Assembly (NCBI GenBank): GCA_014169315.1
Contig: AP022133.1
Span: 4,216,001 to 4,280,000 of the forward strand
Source: Enterobacter cloacae
GTDB taxonomy: Bacteria; Pseudomonadota; Gammaproteobacteria; Enterobacterales; Enterobacteriaceae
Reading direction: 5' to 3'
Length of the DNA: 64,000 bases
Part shown: piece after piece, positions 4,781 to 40,149 of the stretch
How positions within the stretch are numbered: position 1 is the stretch's first letter
Layout: every line of letters begins with the position of its first letter
Program-made: the position numbers and the translations under genes
The notes under the pieces: model-generated
Database searches by the model: none
The model's input: the letters and a program-made list of their open reading frames with translations, nothing else
What the model was told of the DNA's origin: nothing

Positions 4781-5464
4781 ATGCTAACAGTGCCTGGCTT
4801 GTGCTGGCTATGTCGAATGCCACTTGCGCTGAGTCACTGGGGTGTCTGTTCTGTCTGCACGCGCTCACTGGAAGGCCGTATCACGGGGTGTCCACAGTGT
4901 GGTTTACCGGCCATGAGCCGGGTATTTCCCTGTGGCCGCTGCCTGAAAAAATCACCACCGTGGAGCGCCCTGGTGGCGGTTGATGATTATGTCCCACCGC
5001 TGAGCGGGCTTATCCACAAGCTGAAGTTTTCCGGCCAGACCACGCTGGCACACCCTCTGGCTCGCCTGTTGCTGTTGGCGATTTTGCAGGCCCGACGCAC
5101 CCGCGCCCTGCCGAAAGTCGACATGGTAATGAATGTGCCGCTGCACCCACGTCGTCACTGGCAGCGTGGCTATAACCAGAGTGACCTGCTCTGCCAGCCT
5201 CTCGCGCGCTGGCTGGGATGTCGGTATGCGGTTTCAGCGCTTAAACGCGTCCATGCCACCGCGGTACAACATCAGCTCAATGCCCGGCTTCGCAAAAGAA
5301 ACCTGAAAAATGCCTTTCGCCTTGAATTACCGGTCGAAGGTCTCCATATCGCGATTGTGGATGATGTCGTCACCACGGGCAGTACCGTTGCTGAACTTTC
5401 CCGACTGCTTTTGCAAAGCGGTGCCGCGTCGGTTCAGGTATGGTGTCTGTGCCGTACCTTGTAG
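4781..5464 (+). CDS. gntX: GntX/ComF-family phosphoribosyltransferase-like protein
   Basis: 227 aa beginning MLTVPGLCWLC. GGAGG at 4770-4774 fixes the ATG at 4781, although the frame is open further upstream across the bioH start. The N-terminus has paired cysteines (CWLC, CSVC, CPQCG, CGRC) that look like a double zinc ribbon. The C-terminal half has the PRTase signature VDDVVTTGSTVAE, the PRPP-binding loop of type I phosphoribosyltransferases. E. coli GntX/YhgH is needed for DNA use as a nutrient and resembles ComF; its enzymatic activity is not established. It lies just before nfuA. Confidence 0.95.
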   Translation: MLTVPGLCWLCRMPLALSHWGVCSVCTRSLEGRITGCPQCGLPAMSRVFPCGRCLKKSPPWSALVAVDDYVPPLSGLIHKLKFSGQTTLAHPLARLLLLAILQARRTRALPKVDMVMNVPLHPRRHWQRGYNQSDLLCQPLARWLGCRYAVSALKRVHATAVQHQLNARLRKRNLKNAFRLELPVEGLHIAIVDDVVTTGSTVAELSRLLLQSGAASVQVWCLCRTL

Positions 5465-6269: not shown

Positions 6270-6443
6270 GTGATTCTCAATCACGCCATGTTACCCGTAT
6301 CATTCAAGTGGGCACTAAGCACTCTTATAACAGCTAACTACATTTAATAGTTTCACAGGTATCCGTGTTAGTGCCGTTCACACTCTGTTCCCAGTTGGGA
6401 CGAGCGGAAATCGTCATTGACACAATGACGTTACCCATAACAA
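6270..6443 (+). promoter_or_regulatory. gntT promoter region with two GntR operators
   Basis: Two copies of the GntR operator are visible: ATGTTACCCGTATCATT at 6288-6304 and GTTACCCATAACA at 6430-6442, about 140 bp apart. The first overlaps a plausible -10 (TATCAT, 6298-6303), so repressor bound there would block RNA polymerase. Two spaced operators suggest DNA looping, as reported for E. coli gntT. A perfect inverted repeat GTGATT-CTC-AATCAC lies at 6270-6284; its 7-bp centre does not fit a CRP site and its binder is unknown. Confidence 0.65.
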
Positions 6444-12300: not shown

Positions 12301-15590
<3,290 letters not shown>

Positions 15591-31441: not shown

Positions 31442-31520
31442 AAAATGGCCACTGCGTGACCATTTTTAATGTTTGCTCCCTCTCCCCGTGGGAGAGGGCC
31501 GGGGTGAGGGCAATCAGGCC
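31442..31520 (+). repeat. Terminator-REP composite module behind yhgN
   Basis: GTAAAAGCAAAATGGCCA-CTGCG-TGACCATTTTT forms a stem with one mismatch and five T (31442-31467). AATGTTTGCTC and the REP palindrome CCCTCTCCC / GGGAGAGGG with tail GGGGTGAGGGCAATCAGGCC follow directly. The same order and flanks recur behind gntU, livF and livJ with a different stem each time. Confidence 0.8.
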
Positions 31521-31533
31521 ACACTCCTCAAAA

Positions 31534-31546
31534 ATAATCCTTCGTT
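31534..31546 (+). repeat. attL core
   Basis: ATAATCCTTCGTT, identical and in the same orientation at 39307-39319. Flanking bases differ, as expected for att cores. 14 bp to its left the yhgN REP ends. Confidence 0.75.
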
Positions 31547-31676
31547 ATTTAATTATTCTACTCACCTCGTTTCGCACCGTATCCAAAGCAACTCTAAAAT
31601 CACAACAATATTATACTATTTCAATAAGATAGATTTCATGTTGTCTTACTATGTTTTGAGGTATATGCTCGCAATT

Positions 31677-31695
31677 GTGGGTTCATTGGTGGGTT
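31677..31695 (+). other. Left pair of GTGGGTT arm-type sites
   Basis: GTGGGTT at 31677-31683 and 31689-31695, 12 bp apart start to start. An identical pair with the same spacing and orientation lies at 39216-39234. They are likely integrase arm-binding sites, by analogy with P4-family att regions. Confidence 0.5.
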
Positions 31696-31738
31696 CTAAT
31701 CTTACAAAGACAGGCGCAAGGTTTCCGTCTCGATAGTT

Positions 31739-31775
31739 GTTACCCCCACCTGTGCACCTGTTTTACCTGTGGAAA
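31739..31775 (+). repeat. Left copy of 37-bp perfect inverted repeat
   Basis: Begins GTTACCCCCACCTGTGCACC and ends ACCTGTGGAAA. It contains ACCTGT three times at 31748, 31756 and 31765. Its exact reverse complement is at 39081-39117. It ends 20 bp before the integrase start and so overlaps the int control region. Confidence 0.85.
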
Positions 31776-31795
31776 GACGACTTTGAGGATTATAG

Positions 31796-32953
31796 ATGCT
31801 GAATGATGCAAAGCTCCGGGCCTTAGCTCGCGGCCACGATAATACCAGCCCGAAAAAAATTGCGGATAGTAATGGACTTGCTGCGCTTGTCAGACCAAAC
31901 GGGCAAATCTCGTTCATATTCCGATTCAGGTTGAATGCCAAACAGCAAAATTTCACGCTGGGCCAATACCCTAATCTCAGCCTGAAGGCCGCGCGTGAAC
32001 GGGCCACACAGTGCCGCAAATGGCTGGCTGATGGATTTGACCCACGTGTGCAGGCCCGAATTGAGAAGCAAGCCAACCGCGAGCAGCTCACCGTAAGACA
32101 AGCGGTTGATTTCTGGCTTACAGATAGTGAAACAGCGGCGGCAGATAGTTACCGGAAACAGTTCGAGAAGCATATTTTCCCGCACCTGGGGGATCTGCCT
32201 ATCGACCAACTCGACACAGCCGCATGGTTGAAAGTATTCAGCGATATTAAACGTGGTACTTATCACCGCGCAGCCCCGAACGCTGCCGCTTACGTTTTTG
32301 GTTTGACCAAAACAGCAATGAAGTACTGTCGGGCGCGTCAGATGGTCAAGACAACTGTCTTAAATGATCTCAGCGCCGGTGATGTTGGCGCTACGGTCAA
32401 TAAGCGTGACCGGGTGCTTAAACAGAATGAACTTGACGACGCGGTGACGTGGACAAATGACATCCGCAACCCATTTTACTATCGGGCGTTGCTGAAACTG
32501 CTGATTACTTTCGGATGCCGCCTGTCTGAACTGCGGTTATCAACCGTAAAAGAGTGGGATATGAGCGCTATGGTGTGGACGGCTCCTAAGCAGCACACAA
32601 AGACAGGTATAGAAATACAGCGCCCGATTCCTGCTGCACTGGCACCGATACTGACCTCCCTTATGAATGACAGAAAGAGTGGCCTACTTTTAACCGAGAA
32701 GAAAACAGTCGGCTCAGTGTCGAACTACATAATAGGCATCTCACGCAAGTTAGGCCATGACTCATGGACAGCCCACGATCTGCGTAGAACTTTCGCAACC
32801 CGTCTTGCTGATATGGGGGTGCATCATCACGTCATTGAGGCGTTGCTGGGCCACACTCTTCCAGGCGTTGCCGGTATTTATAACCGTAGCCATTTAATTA
32901 ATGAGAAGCGCGAAGCGCTTGAGCTTTGGATGAGTAATGGAGTGAAGCTATGA
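31796..32953 (+). CDS. P4-type tyrosine-recombinase integrase
   Basis: 385-aa site-specific recombinase. An N-terminal arm-binding domain (DUF4102-like; GLAALVRPNGQISFIFRFR, residues 27-45) and a core-binding SAM-like domain (about 95-190) precede the catalytic domain. Catalytic residues can be placed: Arg242 in GCRLSELR, Lys near 265-269, His327 and Arg330 in AHDLRRTF, His353 in LLGHT and nucleophile Tyr362 in GIYNRS. GAGG lies 7 bp before the ATG. It sits just inside attL and reads into the element, 20 bp after the 37-bp inverted repeat. The last bases overlap the next gene by 4 (ATGA). Confidence 0.95.
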   Translation: MLNDAKLRALARGHDNTSPKKIADSNGLAALVRPNGQISFIFRFRLNAKQQNFTLGQYPNLSLKAARERATQCRKWLADGFDPRVQARIEKQANREQLTVRQAVDFWLTDSETAAADSYRKQFEKHIFPHLGDLPIDQLDTAAWLKVFSDIKRGTYHRAAPNAAAYVFGLTKTAMKYCRARQMVKTTVLNDLSAGDVGATVNKRDRVLKQNELDDAVTWTNDIRNPFYYRALLKLLITFGCRLSELRLSTVKEWDMSAMVWTAPKQHTKTGIEIQRPIPAALAPILTSLMNDRKSGLLLTEKKTVGSVSNYIIGISRKLGHDSWTAHDLRRTFATRLADMGVHHHVIEALLGHTLPGVAGIYNRSHLINEKREALELWMSNGVKL

Positions 32954-33390
32954 AATTTTTTCGTAGGGAGGAAGATAAGGCGGACCCACACTTCATCAAG
33001 CGTGCATTAGAGGCGTTTATCTTTTTGGTGGATTCGGGAGCGCCCATTCCCGATGAGTTGTTGCATTTCATGGCTGACGGCGCTAAGCAAAAATTAAAAG
33101 ACGGTACACCATGGCCTACACATACGGGCAGATCGAAAATAGATGAGCATGTACTGGCTTTGGTTGCTGAAATTGACGAAAGGTTTCCCAAAGAGCGCCA
33201 TCAGATAGCTGAATATCTCGAACGCTCTCAAAGACGGGTTAGTCAGATGATTGAGGAAGCCGCCAAGGCTTCGAATACGTCTGCGGTAACAATCCACCGC
33301 CGGATATACAAAGCCATGATTGCGGGCAAAACATTGTCGGAGACCCTATCTGTGCTTGAGCAAGTTAAAGCCTGGGCCGAGGGGAAATAA
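32950..33390 (+). CDS. Unknown 146-aa protein coupled to the integrase
   Basis: Not recognised. The ATG overlaps the integrase stop (ATGA), so translation is probably coupled. It is charged and soluble, with no signal or membrane segment. Residues 75-130 are predicted helical and contain an EYLERSQRRVSQMIEEAAK stretch followed by TSAVTIHRRIYKAMIAGKT, which resembles a helix-turn-helix pair, so DNA binding is possible. A role as excision factor or regulator would suit its place beside int but is inference only. An 87-bp gap separates it from the AlpA-like gene. Confidence 0.8.
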   Translation: MKFFRREEDKADPHFIKRALEAFIFLVDSGAPIPDELLHFMADGAKQKLKDGTPWPTHTGRSKIDEHVLALVAEIDERFPKERHQIAEYLERSQRRVSQMIEEAAKASNTSAVTIHRRIYKAMIAGKTLSETLSVLEQVKAWAEGK

Positions 33391-33477
33391 ACTATTTTTC
33401 GTTTTCTTCCACATTCAACATCCAACATCGCGATGATAGTCGTGCCACAACGGCAAAATACAAATGAGGATATATAA

Positions 33478-33663
33478 ATGGAAAGACTTATAAGCATTCC
33501 ACAGTTAGCTAAATTACTTAACCGCCACCGTACGCGTATCTATGTCTACCAAAAAACCGGGTACCTGCCTCCCGCAATCATGAGAAACGGAAGAACCATT
33601 GGCTGGCGCGAGTCGGATATTACTCGATGGATGGAAGAGAATAAAGATGCGCAAAACAGATAA
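33478..33663 (+). CDS. AlpA-like helix-turn-helix regulator
   Basis: 61-aa MerR/AlpA-type DNA-binding protein. MERLISIPQLAKLLNRHRTRIY is a standard N-terminal HTH, followed by the GYLPPAIMRNGRTIGWRESD wing and a short helix ending DITRWMEENK. Such proteins activate or repress satellite and prophage operons (AlpA of CP4-57, Vis of P4, AlpA of Gram-negative PICIs). AGGATATATA precedes the start. It lies 98 bp upstream of the replication gene, which suggests control of that operon or of excision. Confidence 0.85.
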   Translation: MERLISIPQLAKLLNRHRTRIYVYQKTGYLPPAIMRNGRTIGWRESDITRWMEENKDAQNR

Positions 33664-33761
33664 AGAAAACGCCCAGACCTTTCGGAGCTGAGCGCTTCGC
33701 AACCTTTAACAATCAGCCTGCAACGTGTACCAGACGGCGCAGGCTTTAACCAGGACACTAT

Positions 33762-36230
33762 ATGTCAACTGATGGCGTAATTATGGCAACTGATGCCAAC
33801 AATAGCAAAGTATTATTCAAACTGAAGGCAAAGAACAACAGCATAGAACCTAACACGTGGCTTCGACGTACTGTACGTATGCTGGAGCGCAGCGGCTACT
33901 CCGCTATACCTTGCCTGGCTAATGGCACTACCGCGTCATATGGCGAGGGACAGACATACCCACGCAATCACTCAGTCTGGCAGGGGCGCAATGTTAAAAG
34001 CGATGTCGTAGCTTTCAGGCTTGATGATGTAATTCTCCTAGATTACGACGGCAACAAAGCCCCACAAGGCGAAATTATCAGCATCCGTGAACTGACAGAT
34101 TTACTTGGCCTGTCTGACCTGATGCAGTTTTGCACACAGAAGAATGATGACGGTGATTCGCTCCATTTTCTGTTTCGCTGGCCAGAGGGGGTTGACCGTA
34201 GCATTTATAAAGCAGCCAACAACGGCAAGTGGCAGAAACATATTGATATTAAGACAGGTAATCAGCTCTGCTATCTAAAACGTGGGAAACAGGTTATCGA
34301 GGGTGTATTACCCTGCATTGACGATTTGCCTGAAGCACCGCCAGTGCTGATGGAGACTCTACATAAGGCAAACATTGTTCAGCCAGAAAAGCCCCTCTCC
34401 GCCAGTGGCACAGAGAGTGACATTGAATGGTTTAATCGTACAGCACCTGAATGGGAAGCTTTGTTTTTTGAATACGGTTTCGAAAAACAGGGTAATAAAT
34501 GGCTTCACCCGGAAAGCACCACCGGTAATCCGGGCATATCAATCAACAAGGACGGACGCTACATTTCATCTCACGGGAGCGATCCGCTTTGCGATGGACA
34601 CAACCATGATAAATTCGACTTCATAGCCCAATATCAATATGAGGGCGACAAGTCACAGCTCCTTAGTGATATTCGCCAAAATCGTCAGGCTTGTCTTGAC
34701 GAAGATTTAGCTGATGAACAGGAATGGACATCACCAAAAGAATTGAAGAGCGAACTGGTGCCAGTTGCCCCGTTCGAAGTCAGTCTATTGCCTGCGGCCG
34801 TACGCGCCTATGTCATGGATTACGCTGCCCGTATGGATAACGCAGCGCCTGACTATGCGGCAATATCGGTAATGATTGCAGCCGGTGCAGTTATCGGCGG
34901 TGCGGCTCAAATACAACCCAAGCGGAATGATACAGGCTGGAAATTGGTTCCTAACCTGTGGGGAAGTGCCATCGGCTACCCTTCTGCAATGAAAACACCC
35001 AGCCTCAAATGTGGACTCGATTTGCTGGCACATTCGCAGAAGGTTCTTGACCGTGACTTTATGAGACGCCAGAGCCGTTATGAGGCTGAAAAGGCTATTC
35101 ATGGCGCAAGACGGGCCGATATTGAAGCCAGAATCGAAGCGGCGACACAAGCCGCTAATAGCGCGTTATCCGCCGGGGAAAATGACGATTACGAGGCTGC
35201 CGTGTCTGAGCTTATGCGTCTCCAGGAAAGTCTGAAAGCCGAACCGGATGAACCTAAATCGCGTGAATTAATGGTCAATGACGCCACGGTTGAATCACTA
35301 GCAATCATGGCGAACAATAATCCTATGGGTGTTATGGTCTTCCGTGATGAGCTGAGCGGTTGGCTCGCCAGTCTGGACAGCCCGCAGCGCCCTAACGACC
35401 GTGCATTTTATCTGGAAGGGTTCTCCTGCGGTTCGTATAAACAATCCAGGGTAAGCCGTGCGCCCCTCAAAATAGATAGGCTAATTGTCAGCCTACTTGG
35501 CGGTATTCAACCGGGCAAATTAGCCCCTATTCTCGCCTCTCGCGCTTCAGGTGATGGTGATGACGGTCTTTTAGAGCGTATTATCCAAATGTCAGTATTC
35601 CCTGACCTGTCTGGAGAATATAGGGATACGGCTCCCGACTTAGCGGCGGAGAGTCGCGCTAAGTCCGTTTTCGAAACATTAGCCGGAATTGCTACCGCTG
35701 CCGTATATACCTTTAGCGAGGATGCCCAGAAAATATGGGATGAATGGGCCGTCGGTCATAAGAAGCGCGAGCAATCGGCATCGGCAGACTGGCAAGGTAT
35801 ACTCGGTAAATATCCGGCACTATGCGCAAAAATTGCTCTGGTTCACCACATATTGACTGAGGCTGACGGCATTGATTATGAAAATGACGCATTTAGCCCT
35901 GCACTGAAGGTTTCCACCGATTCTCTATGCTGCGCTCTTCGCTGGATGCAGTACCTTGAGAGCCATGCAACGAGAATTACCACTTACTTCCGTGCTGAAA
36001 AGGAAATGCTTCCGGCAATCACCCTAAGGGATCGGCTTTCGCAACTTAGCCCATCTTTTACTCGTAATTCGTTAGGGCAAAAAGACTGGCAACACCTGAA
36101 GAGCAAAGATGGTCGTGAGTCTGCAATTGAGCAACTGATTAAGACAGGTCATATCCGCGAAGTCATAACCCCGCCTAAGAATGGAACAGGTCGCCCCTCA
36201 GTATCCTTCCTCGTAAACCCACTAATTTAG
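33762..36230 (+). CDS. Primase-polymerase / DUF3987 helicase-like replication protein
   Basis: 822 aa. The N-terminal third matches an archaeo-eukaryotic-type primase: DYD (Asp94, Asp96), SLH (Ser133-His135) and an Asp162 in HID correspond to the three AEP motifs. The middle and C-terminal part resemble DUF3987 helicase-like proteins, with a P-loop-like GYPSAMKTPSLK near residue 405-417 and a Walker-B-like FRDELSGWLASLD near 527-538. A long charged helix at about 430-510 separates them. It is probably the element's replication initiator, analogous in role to P4 alpha. AGGA precedes ATG 33762; MATDANN at 33783 is an alternative start. A terminator follows. Confidence 0.8.
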   Translation: MSTDGVIMATDANNSKVLFKLKAKNNSIEPNTWLRRTVRMLERSGYSAIPCLANGTTASYGEGQTYPRNHSVWQGRNVKSDVVAFRLDDVILLDYDGNKAPQGEIISIRELTDLLGLSDLMQFCTQKNDDGDSLHFLFRWPEGVDRSIYKAANNGKWQKHIDIKTGNQLCYLKRGKQVIEGVLPCIDDLPEAPPVLMETLHKANIVQPEKPLSASGTESDIEWFNRTAPEWEALFFEYGFEKQGNKWLHPESTTGNPGISINKDGRYISSHGSDPLCDGHNHDKFDFIAQYQYEGDKSQLLSDIRQNRQACLDEDLADEQEWTSPKELKSELVPVAPFEVSLLPAAVRAYVMDYAARMDNAAPDYAAISVMIAAGAVIGGAAQIQPKRNDTGWKLVPNLWGSAIGYPSAMKTPSLKCGLDLLAHSQKVLDRDFMRRQSRYEAEKAIHGARRADIEARIEAATQAANSALSAGENDDYEAAVSELMRLQESLKAEPDEPKSRELMVNDATVESLAIMANNNPMGVMVFRDELSGWLASLDSPQRPNDRAFYLEGFSCGSYKQSRVSRAPLKIDRLIVSLLGGIQPGKLAPILASRASGDGDDGLLERIIQMSVFPDLSGEYRDTAPDLAAESRAKSVFETLAGIATAAVYTFSEDAQKIWDEWAVGHKKREQSASADWQGILGKYPALCAKIALVHHILTEADGIDYENDAFSPALKVSTDSLCCALRWMQYLESHATRITTYFRAEKEMLPAITLRDRLSQLSPSFTRNSLGQKDWQHLKSKDGRESAIEQLIKTGHIREVITPPKNGTGRPSVSFLVNPLI

Positions 36231-36235
36231 TCAAA

Positions 36236-36256
36236 TCGCCCTCGCAACGAGGGCGA
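36236..36256 (+). terminator. Stem-loop after the replication gene
   Basis: Perfect 9-bp stem TCGCCCTCG / CGAGGGCGA with loop CAA, 6 bp after the stop, followed by CATAATTTTAC. A weak T-tract makes it a probable rather than certain terminator. The rest of the gap to 36470 is A/T-rich with no gene. Confidence 0.65.
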
Positions 36257-36436
36257 CATAATTTTACATTATTCTACTATTTAATTATAAGAACATATAA
36301 AACAGCTAGTTAAAGACAACCATAGAAATCAATGCGCATAAAGCGCCCACAAACAAACCCACTTTGTATTTTTACGTCGCGGTGTAACGCGAGTTATTGT
36401 GCACATATTGAGCAGACTCATGCCATCCGCTATTGT

Positions 36437-36464
36437 CCTTTGAAATAACATGAATATTCAAAGG
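36437..36464 (+). promoter_or_regulatory. Hairpin sequestering the ribosome site of the next gene
   Basis: CCTTTGAA (36437-36444) pairs perfectly with TTCAAAGG (36457-36464). The right arm contains the AAGG Shine-Dalgarno of the gene starting at 36471. A smaller palindrome TGAATATTCA occupies 36451-36460. Folding would hide the ribosome site. Confidence 0.5.
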
Positions 36465-36470
36465 TGACAT

Positions 36471-36746
36471 ATGGCAAACGGACACGGTGGGGCAAGAGCT
36501 GGAGCAGGCCGAAAACGCAGCCCTCTGCCGAAACAACTCACTGACAATGCGTTAAAACGACTTGCCGAGTTGGTGGAAGAAGGAGACGTTCAAGCGGTGA
36601 GAATGGTTATCGACAGAAGTTTTCCTGCTCTGAAGTCCATTACTCCAACAGGGACGCTGGATGCTGAATTGCTCAAGCTGAAGATCAAAGAGCTTTCAGA
36701 GTTCGAGGAACGCTTAGCGGCACTTGAGGCGAGCAATGGCAGGTAA
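36471..36746 (+). CDS. Small basic protein with terminase-small-subunit-like N-terminus
   Basis: 91 aa. MANGHGGARAGAGRKRS is the glycine/arginine N-terminal motif common to phage small-terminase and related DNA-binding proteins. The rest is helical (ALKRLAELVEEGDVQAVRMVID and a C-terminal coiled-coil-like KIKELSEFEERLAALEA). It is short for a full TerS. In a satellite, a TerS-like protein could redirect helper packaging; that is inference. It overlaps the next gene by 11 bp. Its ribosome site lies inside a hairpin. Confidence 0.65.
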   Translation: MANGHGGARAGAGRKRSPLPKQLTDNALKRLAELVEEGDVQAVRMVIDRSFPALKSITPTGTLDAELLKLKIKELSEFEERLAALEASNGR

Positions 36747-36984
36747 CAACAGGCTTGCCCGTCTGTGTTGGCTGGAGAAGGCTTATGCACCTCATATCCT
36801 GGCTAATTTCCGCTTCGTTACTCATATCACTGTCGAGCAAACAGACCCGCTTTGCGGAAGCTACAAACACAATACATTGCCTGACAGCCCTATTACCGAA
36901 TTAGTCATTTATACGGCTACACGCGAAGCCTACCGGGCGAAGGTTAAACATTTTGAGCAGCATTACACATTACTGGAGGGCTAG
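36736..36984 (+). CDS. Unknown 82-aa element protein
   Basis: Not recognised. ATG 36736 lies within the end of the preceding gene and follows GAGGCGAGCA; an earlier in-frame start at 36724 is less likely. The protein (MAGNNRLARLCWLEKAYAPH...) is soluble, with a beta-rich middle (FVTHITVEQTDPLC) and a C-terminal helix REAYRAKVKHFEQHY. The overlap with both neighbours in one frame-shifting cluster suggests co-translation. Confidence 0.65.
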   Translation: MAGNNRLARLCWLEKAYAPHILANFRFVTHITVEQTDPLCGSYKHNTLPDSPITELVIYTATREAYRAKVKHFEQHYTLLEG

Positions 36985-36987
36985 CTC

Positions 36988-37215
36988 TTGGCAACACTGA
37001 AAGAAAGACTGACCCGGCTTGAGGCAAAGACAACCACAACCACACCTATCGATATTGAATTTCATATCGTTTCTGTCGTAACCAGTGGGGATGAAAGGCG
37101 CGGAACCTGGCACCGCAACACCGAAGATTTACCTTATCCATGCACCACATTTTACGCGGCCTCTGTAGCCGAATTCGAAGCCCTTCGCGATCAACACGCA
37201 CTGGGCCTGTCTTAA
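36988..37215 (+). CDS. Unknown 75-aa element protein (TTG start)
   Basis: Not recognised. It starts at TTG 36988 with a strong GGAGGG at 36975-36980, 3 bp after the previous stop. A short N-terminal coiled coil (LKERLTRLEAK) precedes a beta-like domain (IDIEFHIVSVVTSGDERRGTWHRN) and ends in a helix. Related short proteins occur in prophages, but no function can be assigned. Confidence 0.6.
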   Translation: MATLKERLTRLEAKTTTTTPIDIEFHIVSVVTSGDERRGTWHRNTEDLPYPCTTFYAASVAEFEALRDQHALGLS

Positions 37216-37235
37216 AATATATTAGGAATCAACTT

Positions 37236-37931
37236 ATGAATTATACCTCAAATATGCTTAAAGGCTTCGGTACCTCCTCCCATATTCAGAATATGCATTA
37301 TCGCGCAGCGCTAAAGGTGAATGACGCGATCGAAACGCATAAAGCACTGCTGGCCGACCGCACCCGCACCAAATCGGAGAAAGCGCCAATGTTGGCCAAA
37401 CTGCAAAAGAAATTGGAAGCAGAGGCCCAGCGCGACATTCAGAATATTCTTAACAACCTTAACGCTCGCGCAGATGAGCTGGATAAGAAAGAAGCGGAAA
37501 TTTTATCTTCAATGAGCATGACCGATGCCCTTTCTCTCACTGCGGCAATGAAAGGTATGGATGCCGGTGAAATGATTGCCGCCACGCGAGAATCGAAAGA
37601 GCTTGCCTTAGCAATGGCCATTGTACCTAGCGCATTATCTGGTTTTAGCAAAGACCAGGCGTTTAAGACGTTAATCGACGCCCACTATCCTGATATTAAA
37701 GCGGCAACTGATGAGATGGCCTCCGACTTCAGAGCGTATGAATCCTTACGTAATAACGTTGAAAACACCACTCGCGAAATTGGCTACGATGTGGATTTGA
37801 AAGCGCTGGAGAGCCGTTTTGATGAGAATAAGCTCGAAGTATCTCCAGCGCCAAAAACAATGGCAGAGCAAAATGCCGAACTGGCCCGTCTTGAGCGCTC
37901 CTCCGGCATCGAACCATCCATAAGCGAGTAA
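37236..37931 (+). CDS. Unknown 231-aa coiled-coil protein
   Basis: Not recognised. It starts at ATG 37236 with AGGAA at 37224; the frame runs further upstream without support. Residues 25-100 are strongly helical and charged (THKALLADRTRTKSEKAPML.., KKLEAEAQRDIQNILNNL.., DELDKKEAEIL), which suggests a long coiled coil. A second helical region (about 150-220) follows a more hydrophobic centre. No signal peptide or membrane segment. It could be a scaffold-like or structural satellite protein, but nothing in the sequence proves this. Confidence 0.7.
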   Translation: MNYTSNMLKGFGTSSHIQNMHYRAALKVNDAIETHKALLADRTRTKSEKAPMLAKLQKKLEAEAQRDIQNILNNLNARADELDKKEAEILSSMSMTDALSLTAAMKGMDAGEMIAATRESKELALAMAIVPSALSGFSKDQAFKTLIDAHYPDIKAATDEMASDFRAYESLRNNVENTTREIGYDVDLKALESRFDENKLEVSPAPKTMAEQNAELARLERSSGIEPSISE

Positions 37932-37985
37932 CCAACCCAACAAGGCCTGACCAGCCGGGCCTTTAATTAATTAGGAGCCATTAGC

Positions 37986-38219
37986 ATGAAAACTATTACC
38001 CTCACAGAAGACCAGGCGTCATTGTTAGCCAAACAGTTATTCCTACGTGTGCGCGCCAATAAGTTGGCAAGGGATTACTTCGCCGCAGAAGCCAGTCGTT
38101 ACGAATATGTGTTCTTTAATCCGGTCGAAAGCAAGAGTATGCAGGAGATTGTTGGAGTCTATAACGCCCTCATTCACGATGACTTAGAAGTACTCCGTGA
38201 TATGGACCGCCATTCCTGA
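37986..38219 (+). CDS. Unknown 77-aa helical protein
   Basis: Not recognised. TTAGGAG precedes the ATG at good distance. It is mostly helical and soluble (MKTITLTEDQASLLAKQLFLRV..., C-terminal IVGVYNALIHDDLEVLRDMDRHS). Last plus-strand gene of the element. Confidence 0.65.
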   Translation: MKTITLTEDQASLLAKQLFLRVRANKLARDYFAAEASRYEYVFFNPVESKSMQEIVGVYNALIHDDLEVLRDMDRHS

Positions 38220-38251
38220 TGAAAAGGAGAAGTCGTTATTAGCCCCTCTAC

Positions 38252-38272
38252 TGCCCGGTCCGACACCGGGCA
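38252..38272. terminator. Stem-loop between convergent element genes
   Basis: 8-bp perfect stem TGCCCGGT / ACCGGGCA with 5-nt loop, between the 77-aa gene and the oppositely oriented lipoprotein. T-tracts are weak. Confidence 0.5.
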
Positions 38273-38281
38273 ACCTTACCA

Positions 38282-38878
38282 CTAAACCCCGCCTCTTGCT
38301 TTTACTGCATCGACTTTTGACATGAATTCTTTGATAGAAACAATCGCAGTAGCCTTACCACCAGGAATATGCTCAGCTGAGAAATATATGTCTTGGTTAC
38401 CCTGACCAGTATGTATGCGAAGACGACAGTTTTTAGACGCAACCATTTTCTGCAATACTTCGTATGGTATTACAATAGTATTTTTGCTGGATGTATAAAT
38501 TGTTTTAGAAACCGTATTGTACCCGCTGCTATTTAAGCTGGTTGATTCATTGGCCTTGTAGCTGGAAATATTGCCGTCAATATTAATATCCAGAGCCGTC
38601 AGGCTTAAATAGGCTGAAGAGCCATTTGAAATATTTGAACTATAAGAAAGCACAAGCCCTACTTCGTTCGGCATAGCGCTAGACCAAATCGCTCCTAACT
38701 GGATTGGCGTTCCCCAAGCACTGTTTGGGTCATAGAGGGAGTTTGGGGACACATCGATAACTGTTGAGTTGTCAAAGGCAGAGGTTTGTTGAGATACGAC
38801 CCCCATTCCCGCCAGCTTATCCATAGCGGTACAACCGGTCAAAACCAGCAGCACCAACATTAATGCACTCTTTTTCAT
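38282..38878 (-). CDS. Unknown lipoprotein encoded opposite to the rest of the element
   Basis: 198 aa when started at MKKSALML (38878), the ATG with AGGA 6-7 bases upstream; two more upstream in-frame ATGs lack spacing. The type II signal peptide ends in LVLTGC, with lipidation at Cys16; Thr at +2 predicts the outer membrane. The mature part is Ser/Asn-rich and beta-like, with a single further Cys in NCRLRIHTGQGNQDIYF. No family is recognised. A lone surface lipoprotein at the distal end of a satellite, transcribed on its own, resembles cargo (moron) genes such as superinfection-exclusion lipoproteins, but this is inference. Confidence 0.75.
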   Translation of the reverse strand: MKKSALMLVLLVLTGCTAMDKLAGMGVVSQQTSAFDNSTVIDVSPNSLYDPNSAWGTPIQLGAIWSSAMPNEVGLVLSYSSNISNGSSAYLSLTALDINIDGNISSYKANESTSLNSSGYNTVSKTIYTSSKNTIVIPYEVLQKMVASKNCRLRIHTGQGNQDIYFSAEHIPGGKATAIVSIKEFMSKVDAVKARGGV

Positions 38879-39080
38879 ATTCATTCCTAATGTTGTAATT
38901 TTTCCCGTACCAGAAAACATGATACTAACCACCATAAGATCTTACGTAAATGCCAATCCTCAGCCTACGTATACAGTTGCCCGTCTTAGGCGTCATTTTT
39001 GCCTAGGAAATTCCCACTATTCGTGGGTTGAAACCAGATGCTAGTGCTGCAAAACATTACCCCCATCCAAAATCGCATGG

Positions 39081-39117
39081 TTTCCACAGGTAAAACAGGT
39101 GCACAGGTGGGGGTAAC
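39081..39117 (-). repeat. Right copy of 37-bp perfect inverted repeat
   Basis: Exact reverse complement of 31739-31775, so it carries three ACAGGT on the plus strand. It lies 190 bp inside attR. Confidence 0.85.
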
Positions 39118-39215
39118 ATATCAACCGCCTGTCTTTAATAGGGGGATACATAAGCAAAAATGTAACTAAATATTACATATATTTTTCCATTTAATAGACA
39201 GGCAGATTTTCATTC

Positions 39216-39234
39216 GTGGGTTTTGCTGTGGGTT
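39216..39234 (+). other. Right pair of GTGGGTT arm-type sites
   Basis: GTGGGTT at 39216-39222 and 39228-39234, with the same 12-bp phasing and orientation as the left pair. A further single copy is at 39023-39029. An AGACAGGC motif (39196-39203) also occurs near the left pair (31708-31715) and inverted at 39127-39134. Confidence 0.5.
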
Positions 39235-39306
39235 TAAACGTAAAAACAACTTAAATTAAAATATCAAAAATTTATACATATCAATTAATTACACAGAATT
39301 AAGAGC

Positions 39307-39319
39307 ATAATCCTTCGTT
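39307..39319 (+). repeat. attR core
   Basis: ATAATCCTTCGTT, identical to 31534-31546. Chromosomal-side sequence TTGCGAGCCGCC follows. Confidence 0.75.
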
Positions 39320-39607
39320 TTGCGAGCCGCCTTCCAGAGCCTCTCTTGCCACCCGATCGGCAAAGCAGTATCTTCTTGCCGCGCCTGCAAAATCAGGCGT
39401 CAGGATTAGCCTCCTGCCAGACTTCTTCGGTGACACAAGTATTTTTGTGTCGCGCGCTTAGCTACACTCCAAGGGTGGGCCGAGCGGGGGCGTCGCAAGA
39501 CGCACCGGTATCCGAAGAGGCCGGTAAGGCTAACCCTGCTCGGTTCCGCCACCAGCGAGATTAGCCTCTCCAGTGGTGGATAAAAACTACTCTTTGGAGG
39601 CGGTCAT
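39320..39607 (+). ncRNA. Structured leader with P4-immunity-RNA-like complementarity
   Basis: About 290 nt before the gene at 39608. Hairpins: 39382-39399 (CGCCTG / CAGGCG), 39401-39416, 39430-39453 (GACACAA / TTGTGTC) and 39549-39579 (CCACCA / TGGTGG). The 10-mer GATTAGCCTC occurs at 39404-39413 and 39559-39568. Between them GGCTAA (39528-39533) can pair with either copy, and CCGAAGA (39512-39518) pairs with TCTTCGG (39424-39430). Two copies of a target flanking one antisense segment is the layout of the P4 CI immunity region. An open frame crossing it is probably not a gene. Confidence 0.4.
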
Positions 39608-40054
39608 ATGACTACTACCCCTGGCTTTTCTCACTCTTTATTCACTACCCCATTCGATCACACTACCGATTTCACCGAACTGGCGGACAACTGCGAGCGA
39701 TTCGTAGACGTGCTGGTTGAATGTGAAGATCCGGCACAAAAGATGGCGCTATGCGGACGGCTTTCCGCCTGCCTCGCCCTGCTCCAGCCAACGCTGCTTG
39801 AGCCTGTTCCTGAACATGTAAAAGCAAGCCTGACGGTGGATGACCTGCCGCTTGACGTGCCACTCTTCGAGCCGGAAAGCGATCAGCTTGGGCAATATTG
39901 CCAGCTGTTAACGCAGCTGCTGCTGAGCCGTACTTTGTCGGCGCGTGATGAGAGAATTGCGGGAGATTTATTGCAGGATCTTGTGGCGTTTTACAGCGGT
40001 ACGCTGAAAGCGCCACGCTGGCTGCGAACTAATGAGGGTGTCGTGCAGTTGTAA
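39608..40054 (+). CDS. Unknown 148-aa acidic protein
   Basis: Not recognised by name. It has a strong ribosome site TTTGGAGG, 7 bp before ATG. It is acidic, all-helical and soluble, with no signal peptide (MTTTPGFSHSLFTTPFDH, CEDPAQKMALCGRLSACLALLQP, LGQYCQLLTQLLLSRTLSARDERIAGDLL). It lies outside the attR core yet behind the structured leader, and has no counterpart in K-12 between yhgN and gntU. It may be the remains of an older satellite insertion or a host accessory gene that the newer element used as its landing site. Confidence 0.7.
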   Translation: MTTTPGFSHSLFTTPFDHTTDFTELADNCERFVDVLVECEDPAQKMALCGRLSACLALLQPTLLEPVPEHVKASLTVDDLPLDVPLFEPESDQLGQYCQLLTQLLLSRTLSARDERIAGDLLQDLVAFYSGTLKAPRWLRTNEGVVQL

Positions 40055-40069
40055 ATCCAACCTCTGCGG

Positions 40070-40149
40070 TCTGATGCCCTCACCCCGGACCGTACACCCA
40101 CAGGGAGAGGGAGCAAACACTAAAAACGACAATCTAAGATTGTCGTTTT
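40070..40149 (-). repeat. Degenerate REP plus terminator module behind gntU
   Basis: Decayed REP (CTGATGCCCTCACCCCGGACC...CAGGGAGAGGGAG, 40070-40113), then CAAACACTA and a perfect 12-bp stem AAAACGACAATC / GATTGTCGTTTT with loop TAA (40123-40149), followed by ACTTTTACCC. On the minus strand the order is terminator then REP, as behind yhgN and livF. The stem is a bidirectional terminator for gntU and the 148-aa gene. Confidence 0.8.

What the first reader, a model, noticed from the sequence alone, without database searches (positions are those of the whole stretch)
31534..39319. 7.8-kb satellite-like element between yhgN and gntU
Sequence shows a 13-bp direct repeat at both ends, a P4-type integrase, an AlpA-like regulator, an AEP-primase/DUF3987 fusion, a TerS-like small protein, several unknown genes and a lipoprotein, with no structural phage genes. 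Known P4 satellites and Gram-negative PICIs share the int-AlpA-primase logic. The 13-bp core in a non-tRNA target and the particular gene set may define an undescribed satellite family.
Basis: partly seen in the sequence, partly recalled or inferred. Interest (0 to 1): 0.8.

Follow-up and report, generated by a model that had tools for sequence, protein, structure and literature searches.

The report
Small phage-parasite island in an enterobacterium
A 7.8-kb block of DNA inserted in this enterobacterium looks like a tiny parasite of phages whose nearest relative with known surroundings sits in a marine Vibrio, which hints that a satellite family reported only from Vibrio and only from one insertion site reaches further.

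Summary
A 7,773-bp unit lies between two copies of ATAATCCTTCGTT (31534-31546, 39307-39319). Five genomes of the same genus carry the joined, empty site. The unit encodes a tyrosine integrase, a 146-aa protein overlapping int by ATGA, AlpA, an AEP-primase/DUF3987 fusion, a 91-aa TerS-like protein, four unknown proteins and a lipoprotein; no credible structural match. The closest relative with known surroundings is an element at fis in Vibrio sonorensis: int 49%, AlpA 36%, primase 45%, 91-aa protein 64% identical, in the same order, with the same two end motifs. That element has the anatomy of a PICMI, a satellite family published as complete only in Vibrio and always at fis. The element here fails the fis criterion, so I call it PICMI-like, not a PICMI. 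Most likely a helper phage triggers excision by Int and AlpA, the primase replicates it, and the helper packages it, perhaps steered by the TerS-like protein; these steps are inferred. New variant of a known kind.

The parts
31534..31546 (.). left att core, 13-bp direct repeat ATAATCCTTCGTT
   Evidence: a single copy (0 to 3 substitutions) in joined empty sites of five genomes
31677..31695 (+). doubled motif GTGGGTT-N5-GTGGGTT, candidate integrase arm sites, 130 bp inside the core
   Evidence: 2 matches in the window, none of 100 shuffles had 2; same place in L032; P4 annotated geometry
31738..31775 (+). left arm of perfect 38-bp inverted repeat containing a triple ACCTG motif
   Evidence: I1; motif; same motif at both ends of L032
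31796..32953 (+). int, tyrosine integrase, 385 aa
   Evidence: 49% identical to L032 int
32950..33390 (+). 146-aa protein overlapping int by ATGA (position of iolg in PICMI115)
   Evidence: no credible known family; 3 database entries, one of them the window's own cluster
33478..33663 (+). alpA, 61-aa AlpA-type regulator/excisionase
33762..36230 (+). prim, 822-aa AEP-type primase fused to DUF3987 helicase-like domain
36236..36256 (+). terminator-like hairpin after prim (such sites are no more frequent than in shuffles)
   Evidence: 7 found in the region, shuffles mean 8.7
36471..36746 (+). 91-aa TerS-like / DUF5681-related protein
   Evidence: 64% to the L032 protein
36739..36984 (+). 81-aa unknown protein
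   Evidence: no credible family
36988..37215 (+). 75-aa unknown protein (TTG start)
   Evidence: no family
37236..37931 (+). 231-aa unknown protein
   Evidence: found in 1 of 392 family genomes, the own one
37986..38219 (+). 77-aa unknown protein
   Evidence: no credible family
38282..38878 (-). 198-aa lipoprotein (signal peptide with LTGC), phrog_7678 of unknown function
   Evidence: lipobox by inspection
39081..39118 (-). right arm of the 38-bp inverted repeat
39216..39234 (+). second doubled GTGGGTT motif, co-oriented, 72 bp inside the core
39307..39319 (.). right att core

Best explanation
This is an integrated, probably intact phage satellite of the PICMI/PICI type. Shown here: boundaries, gene set, empty sites, and gene order and end motifs shared with the V. 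sonorensis element at fis. Inferred: a helper phage turns on alpA; Int, the overlapping 146-aa protein and AlpA excise the unit by recombining the 13-bp cores, with Int bound at the doubled GTGGGTT arm sites; the AEP-DUF3987 protein replicates the circle, the triple-ACCTG repeats being its origin, further arm sites or an operator; the 91-aa protein acts as a small-terminase substitute or modifier that favours satellite DNA in the helper's packaging motor; the DNA travels in helper particles and re-enters the site upstream of the C4 cassette. The lipoprotein and the 231-aa protein are probably cargo, the lipoprotein possibly excluding other phages (a guess).
For: Joined empty sites with one core in five same-genus genomes; the primase is in 0 of 60 other genus genomes and 0 of 391 others in an overlapping family sample, as for a mobile element. 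Int, AlpA, primase and the 91-aa protein are homologous and in the same order in L032, which ends in a Fis-family gene with a 16-bp direct repeat. Both end motifs occur at both ends of both elements, and the triple-ACCTG pattern occurs only in this element among 355 genomes. The doubled motif has the geometry of annotated P4 attP arm repeats and of HE-PICI attP motifs (PMC10111431). The int/ATGA overlap equals that of PICMI115, where int, iolg and alpA are needed for excision and prim for replication (PMC10803314). All ten reading frames are open. TerS role: in a more distant island (Colwellia, L044) the next gene after the DUF3987 primase, the relative position of the 91-aa gene here, is a Terminase_2 small subunit.
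Against: No helper, excision, replication or packaging is shown. The 146-, 81-, 75- and 231-aa proteins have no homology to the L032 proteins compared with them, and neither they nor the 77-aa protein and the lipoprotein matched anything in the fifteen loci scanned. Core and target differ from fis. TerS identity rests on an N-terminal match; the structure model is weak (pLDDT 63.7) and the best solved-structure match is only E 0.1. Only one close relative with known surroundings was available.
Confidence: 0.74

Rival explanations
1. It is an ordinary Gram-negative PICI (fis-PICI/HE-PICI branch) that changed its target site and primase, so the Vibrio link reflects only the general PICI integrase clade.
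For: Integration, replication and late zones fit the PICI layout of PMC10111431. A 16.5-kb capsid-encoding record (LR881103, cf-PICI-like by my reading) holds the best phage-collection integrase match, 41% identical; its next gene touches int by one base, and it too has a doubled motif of period 12 (GTATAAAC) on both sides of a fis-like core, so the arm geometry does not tell the families apart.
Against: The V. sonorensis integrase is closer (49%), the 91-aa protein is 64% identical there, and the triple-ACCTG repeat is shared with that element and absent from the other loci held. No set of fis-PICI integrases was compared here.
Confidence: 0.14
2. It is an integrative element mobilised by something other than a phage (plasmid conjugation or transformation), with phage-like replication genes.
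For: No credible virion gene; six of the ten proteins (146, 91, 81, 75, 231 and 77 aa) have no credible Pfam, PHROGs or NCBIfam match.
Against: Integrase, AlpA and primase are of the kinds found in phage satellites; a TerS-like protein; no relaxase or mobilisation family matched.
Confidence: 0.09
3. It is a P4-type satellite.
For: Arm-binding tyrosine integrase, AlpA-type protein and the same arm-site geometry.
Against: No Psu, delta, epsilon or Pox_D5-type alpha match; DUF3987 replaces the last.
Confidence: 0.02
4. It is a decayed prophage remnant.
For: Small size, genes of unknown function.
Against: Matching site pair, open integrase and primase frames, symmetrical end motifs and a colinear relative of similar size (8.3 kb) in Vibrio.
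Confidence: 0.01

Closest known systems
Element at fis in Vibrio sonorensis CAIM 1076 (NZ_LJJE01000094, L032 6309-14606), PICMI-type by anatomy
   Same: int, alpA, DUF3987 primase and 91-aa homologue in the same order; triple-ACCTG inverted repeat and doubled GTGGGTT at both ends, near-equal distances of the doubled motif from the cores (130/72 against 131/68 bp)
   Different: target fis and a 16-bp repeat of other sequence; other genes between int and alpA and after the 91-aa homologue; an extra gene (192-aa frame) before prim
PICMI115 of Vibrio chagasii (PMC10803314)
   Same: int with ATGA-overlapping next gene, alpA, primase; small size; no capsid genes
   Different: 6.1 kb, 17-bp repeats at fis, authors found no terS homologue; its sequence was not compared here
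Gram-negative PICIs, HE-PICIs and cf-PICIs (PMC6092414, PMC10111431; LR881103)
   Same: int-alpA-replication layout, related integrase, doubled arm motif geometry (HE-PICI in print, LR881103 seen here)
   Different: LR881103 is 16.5 kb with capsid, portal and terminase genes; motif sequences differ
P4 (NC_001609)
   Same: geometry of integrase arm repeats, AlpA-type regulator, a primase-helicase gene
   Different: no psu/delta/epsilon here; primase of another family; different gene order; tRNA target (recalled)

Membership tests
PICMI | integrase, AlpA and primase (DUF3987 or DUF5906) colocalised | tested here: met
   families; model from PMC10803314 Methods
PICMI | integration at fis ('hallmark') | tested here: not met
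   site lies between yhgN and a C4 cassette before gntU; empty sites there
PICMI | gene overlapping int (21 of 35 subfamilies; ATGA commonest) | tested here: met
   overlap at 32950-32953
PICMI | small size (6.7 kb mean in Vibrionaceae) and no capsid-remodelling genes | tested here: met
   7.8 kb; no credible structural match, though six proteins are of unknown family
PICMI | no terS-type packaging gene (reported for PICMI115) | tested here: inconclusive
   TerS-like N-terminus only; the V. sonorensis element has the homologue too
PICMI | induction by a virulent helper and concatemer packaging | not testable with these tools
   needs bench work
Gram-negative PICI | specific att sites, int, AlpA, replication zone | tested here: met
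   layout
Gram-negative PICI | phage-dependent induction, interference, specific packaging | not testable with these tools
   features listed in the abstract of PMC6092414
P4-like satellite | psu, delta, sid, epsilon, alpha next to integrase and alpA (list in PMC8628076) | tested here: not met
   Pfam models of psu, delta, epsilon and alpha did not match at E up to 1; sid uses a custom profile and was not searched
Terminase small subunit | profile match or position next to a large subunit | tested here: inconclusive
   no profile match, no large subunit in the element; N-terminus shared with TerS beside TerL in L063 and L071; Terminase_2 in the same relative position in L044

The most novel reading that the evidence does not exclude
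The element represents a satellite lineage spanning Enterobacteriaceae, Aeromonas and Vibrio, of which the Vibrio fis elements are one branch; it keeps a conserved attP with paired arms and triple-ACCTG repeats while switching target site, and it steers helper packaging with a 91-aa terminase mimic that has no large-subunit partner of its own.
Probability: 0.4. Interest if true: 0.66.

Novelty: new variant of a known kind. Interest (0 to 1): 0.5.

Why it matters
The PICMI paper reports no complete PICMI outside Vibrio and calls fis integration a hallmark. A colinear relative with a different target in an enterobacterial genome would separate the satellite's core (int, AlpA, primase, end motifs) from its host and site, and would put the system within reach of enterobacterial genetics. 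The shared TerS-like protein makes a testable question of how such small satellites get packaged. The two end motifs give a specific sequence signature for finding more members.

Tried and rejected
P4 membership was rejected (no psu, delta, epsilon or P4-type alpha). The C4 antisense RNA at 39468-39556 was first considered as an immunity RNA of the element; rejected because it lies outside the right core and was found in all 18 right-flank loci scanned (18 of the 30 held), in none of which element sequence was seen. Anti-phage cargo: PADLOC gave only weak or AlpA-type matches. The arm-motif geometry was first taken as a mark of this lineage; P4 and LR881103 have it too, so only the motif sequences are specific.

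Searches that led nowhere: E. coli genomes with the whole element and with int; phages and plasmids with the 91-aa protein; phages with the lipoprotein; viral contigs with the 231-aa protein, both forms of the triple-ACCTG pattern and a V. fluvialis primase; phages and plasmids with the primase, and phages with the V. fluvialis one, gave only partial matches. The first doubled-motif pattern with a 6-base gap found nothing; the gap is 5. Profile search of solved structures with the primase alignment: none. The primase model is poor (pLDDT 61.2, pTM 0.45) and its fold search gave no match at E 0.001 or below; ignored. The 91-aa model is weak and was not searched. Of the seven other order genomes matched, three were fetched with wide flanks, four were not. 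Promoter and terminator scans gave no more sites than shuffles.
Full report
What is there. The window lies at C1:4216001-4280000 of a 5.0-Mb genome. No call names the host; its gntU is 86% and its yhgN 81% identical to those of E. coli, and I infer Enterobacteriaceae from that. Two copies of ATAATCCTTCGTT bound a 7,773-bp unit of lower GC (0.471 against 0.548 and 0.552). Ten genes fill it: int, a 146-aa gene overlapping int by ATGA, alpA, the 822-aa primase, then 91-, 81-, 75-, 231- and 77-aa genes in one direction, and a lipoprotein gene on the other strand.

It is an insertion. The right flank was found in 50 of 61 genus genomes, the own one included; many of these matches are other copies of a dispersed cassette. 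Of the 30 loci held from that search (L002-L031, L002 being the window's own), 16, from 16 genomes, contain both the yhgN end and the cassette, 43 to 747 bases apart, so none of these 16 has the 7.8-kb unit between them. In five (L004, L005, L011, L012, L018) a 706-base left flank and the right flank meet exactly at one 13-base core, identical to the window's in L011 and with one to three substitutions in the others. Three more (L003, L010, L019) show the joined core with only about 55 to 76 aligned bases of left flank. The primase is absent from the 60 other genus genomes and from the 391 others of a family sample; the samples overlap. The genomes are one per species, so presence within the window's own species is untested. 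The protein database holds a 96% identical primase (P0001), and clusters to which the window's own 91-aa and 146-aa proteins seem to belong (P0048, 26 contigs; P0063, 48 contigs), so close copies exist.

Who are the relatives. The primase has 13 database relatives scoring over 500 bits, the named ones from Cronobacter turicensis (77%), Raoultella ornithinolytica (59%) and Vibrio (43-45%). The 91-aa protein has named relatives in Klebsiella/Raoultella (80%) and Aeromonas (P0057 64%, P0059 62%, P0060 77% over 68% of the length, P0062 34%). The scan of genome contigs gave 23 loci. One, L032 of Vibrio sonorensis, holds a colinear element: int 49%, AlpA 36%, primase 45% over residues 198-820, 91-aa protein 64%. 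It ends in a Fis-family gene, with a 16-bp direct repeat at 6309-6324 and 14591-14606, and has a MerR-family gene further upstream, as PICMI115 has zntR (zntR itself not tested). The other genes compared do not match (146-, 231-, 75-, 81-aa). A sample of 394 order genomes gave 8 with a primase-profile match at E 1e-20, the own one included.

Ends. A perfect 38-bp inverted repeat, 31738-31775 and 39081-39118, has a 7,305-bp interior. Its core, ACCTGYGNACCTGNNNTACCTGYG, is also at both ends of L032. In 355 order genomes it occurs twice, both in this element; the reversed control was 0 in the rows printed. Outside it, GTGGGTT-N5-GTGGGTT stands at both ends of both elements in the same orientation, 130 and 72 bp from the cores here, 131 and 68 bp in L032, against 113 and 54 bp for the annotated 12-bp attP arm repeats of P4. 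HE-PICIs have a doubled motif of another sequence 81 and 132 bp from the attP centre, which that paper did not find in fis-PICI attPs; the LR881103 record, with a fis-like core, nonetheless has its own doubled motif, GTATAAAC. I read the GTGGGTT pairs as integrase arm sites by this geometry, which is thus not specific to one family; the triple-ACCTG repeat could be an origin, further arm sites or an operator. That part is inference.

Proteins. Int carries the Arm-DNA-bind_3 and Phage_integrase domains and the catalytic set (residue roles recalled). The primase N-terminus is AEP by transitivity, with LLDYD at 92, SLHF at 133 and HIDIKTGN at 160 where AEP motifs would be expected, and GYPSAMKTPS at 405 and VFRDELS at 526, Walker-like, in DUF3987 (motif roles recalled). 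The 91-aa protein shares an N-terminus of the MANGHGGARxGAGRK kind with many phage proteins (66 viral loci), among them small terminases next to large-terminase genes in L063 and L071. Its relatives P0057-P0059 are listed with DUF5681, confirmed for P0057. In Colwellia L044 the gene after the primase is a Terminase_2 small subunit. I call the 91-aa protein TerS-like, not TerS.

Comparison with the literature. From PMC10803314 I read the abstract, parts 1 and 2 of the Results, the distribution section, the Discussion, one Methods section and search passages. PICMI115: int, overlapping iolg, alpA, up1, prim, up2; alpA, int and iolg needed for excision, prim for replication; concatemer packaging by a virulent phage. 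[quoted passage not shown] Results say fis was optional in the model, Methods list it as mandatory; 68 of their 135 first hits were outside Vibrionaceae (my subtraction), so elements like this one may be among them. V. sonorensis is not in the main text; supplements were not available. From PMC10111431 I read passages and sections 19 and 20: 3565 islands at fis, limited to Enterobacterales; yhgN and DUF3987 do not occur in its main text. From PMC6092414, PMC8628076 and PMC13230959 I saw passages. Paper searches seen as listings: 20 of 115, 7 of 7, 12 of 12, 3 of 3, 15 of 17, 12 of 2165, 15 of 87. Nothing listed is visibly a description of such an element; the library is open-access papers only and most listed papers were not opened.

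Verdict. An integrated satellite is well supported. By the family's own hallmark it is not a PICMI, but it works like one as far as anatomy shows. Helper, induction, replication mode and packaging are unknown. The host genome holds six AlpA-type genes, the element's included. Of two large-terminase families sought, phrog_2 gave one clear match (E 2.4e-43) and three weak ones, and phrog_9 matched only the element's own integrase, so a resident prophage is possible as helper or competitor.

Noticed in passing
window 39307-40054: A C4 antisense RNA (39468-39556) followed by a 148-aa ORF without a known family forms a dispersed cassette in the genus, several copies in many genomes; next to yhgN it is in inverted orientation in 4 of 16 loci (L008, L010, L016, L017).
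   Followed up: partly
window 31475-31520 and 40065-40115: Related inverted extragenic repeats lie after yhgN and after the 148-aa ORF, bracketing the cassette; similar repeats occur in many of the related loci. They could explain its inversion by recombination.
   Followed up: no
G000 C1: 82441, 491685, 3194292, 3476309, 3917177: Five further AlpA-type genes in the host genome besides the one in the element, so other satellites or islands are likely.
   Followed up: no
L137 (LR881103) about 4786-5140 and 6343: This capsid-encoding 16.5-kb record shows doubled GTATAAAC motifs of period 12 on both sides of a fis-like core, and its next gene touches int by one base: the same layout with another motif.
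   Followed up: partly
P0064, Jinshanibacter sp. LJY008: An 82% relative of the 146-aa int-overlapping protein is in a genome that the primase scan did not return; whether that genome is in the scanned collection is not known. It may hint at swapping of the replication module.
   Followed up: no
L044 4828-11984, L140: Other int-DUF3987 islands in Colwellia and an unnamed order genome follow a YicC-type gene (tested in L044; by likeness in L140); L044 has a Terminase_2 small-subunit gene right after the primase.
   Followed up: partly
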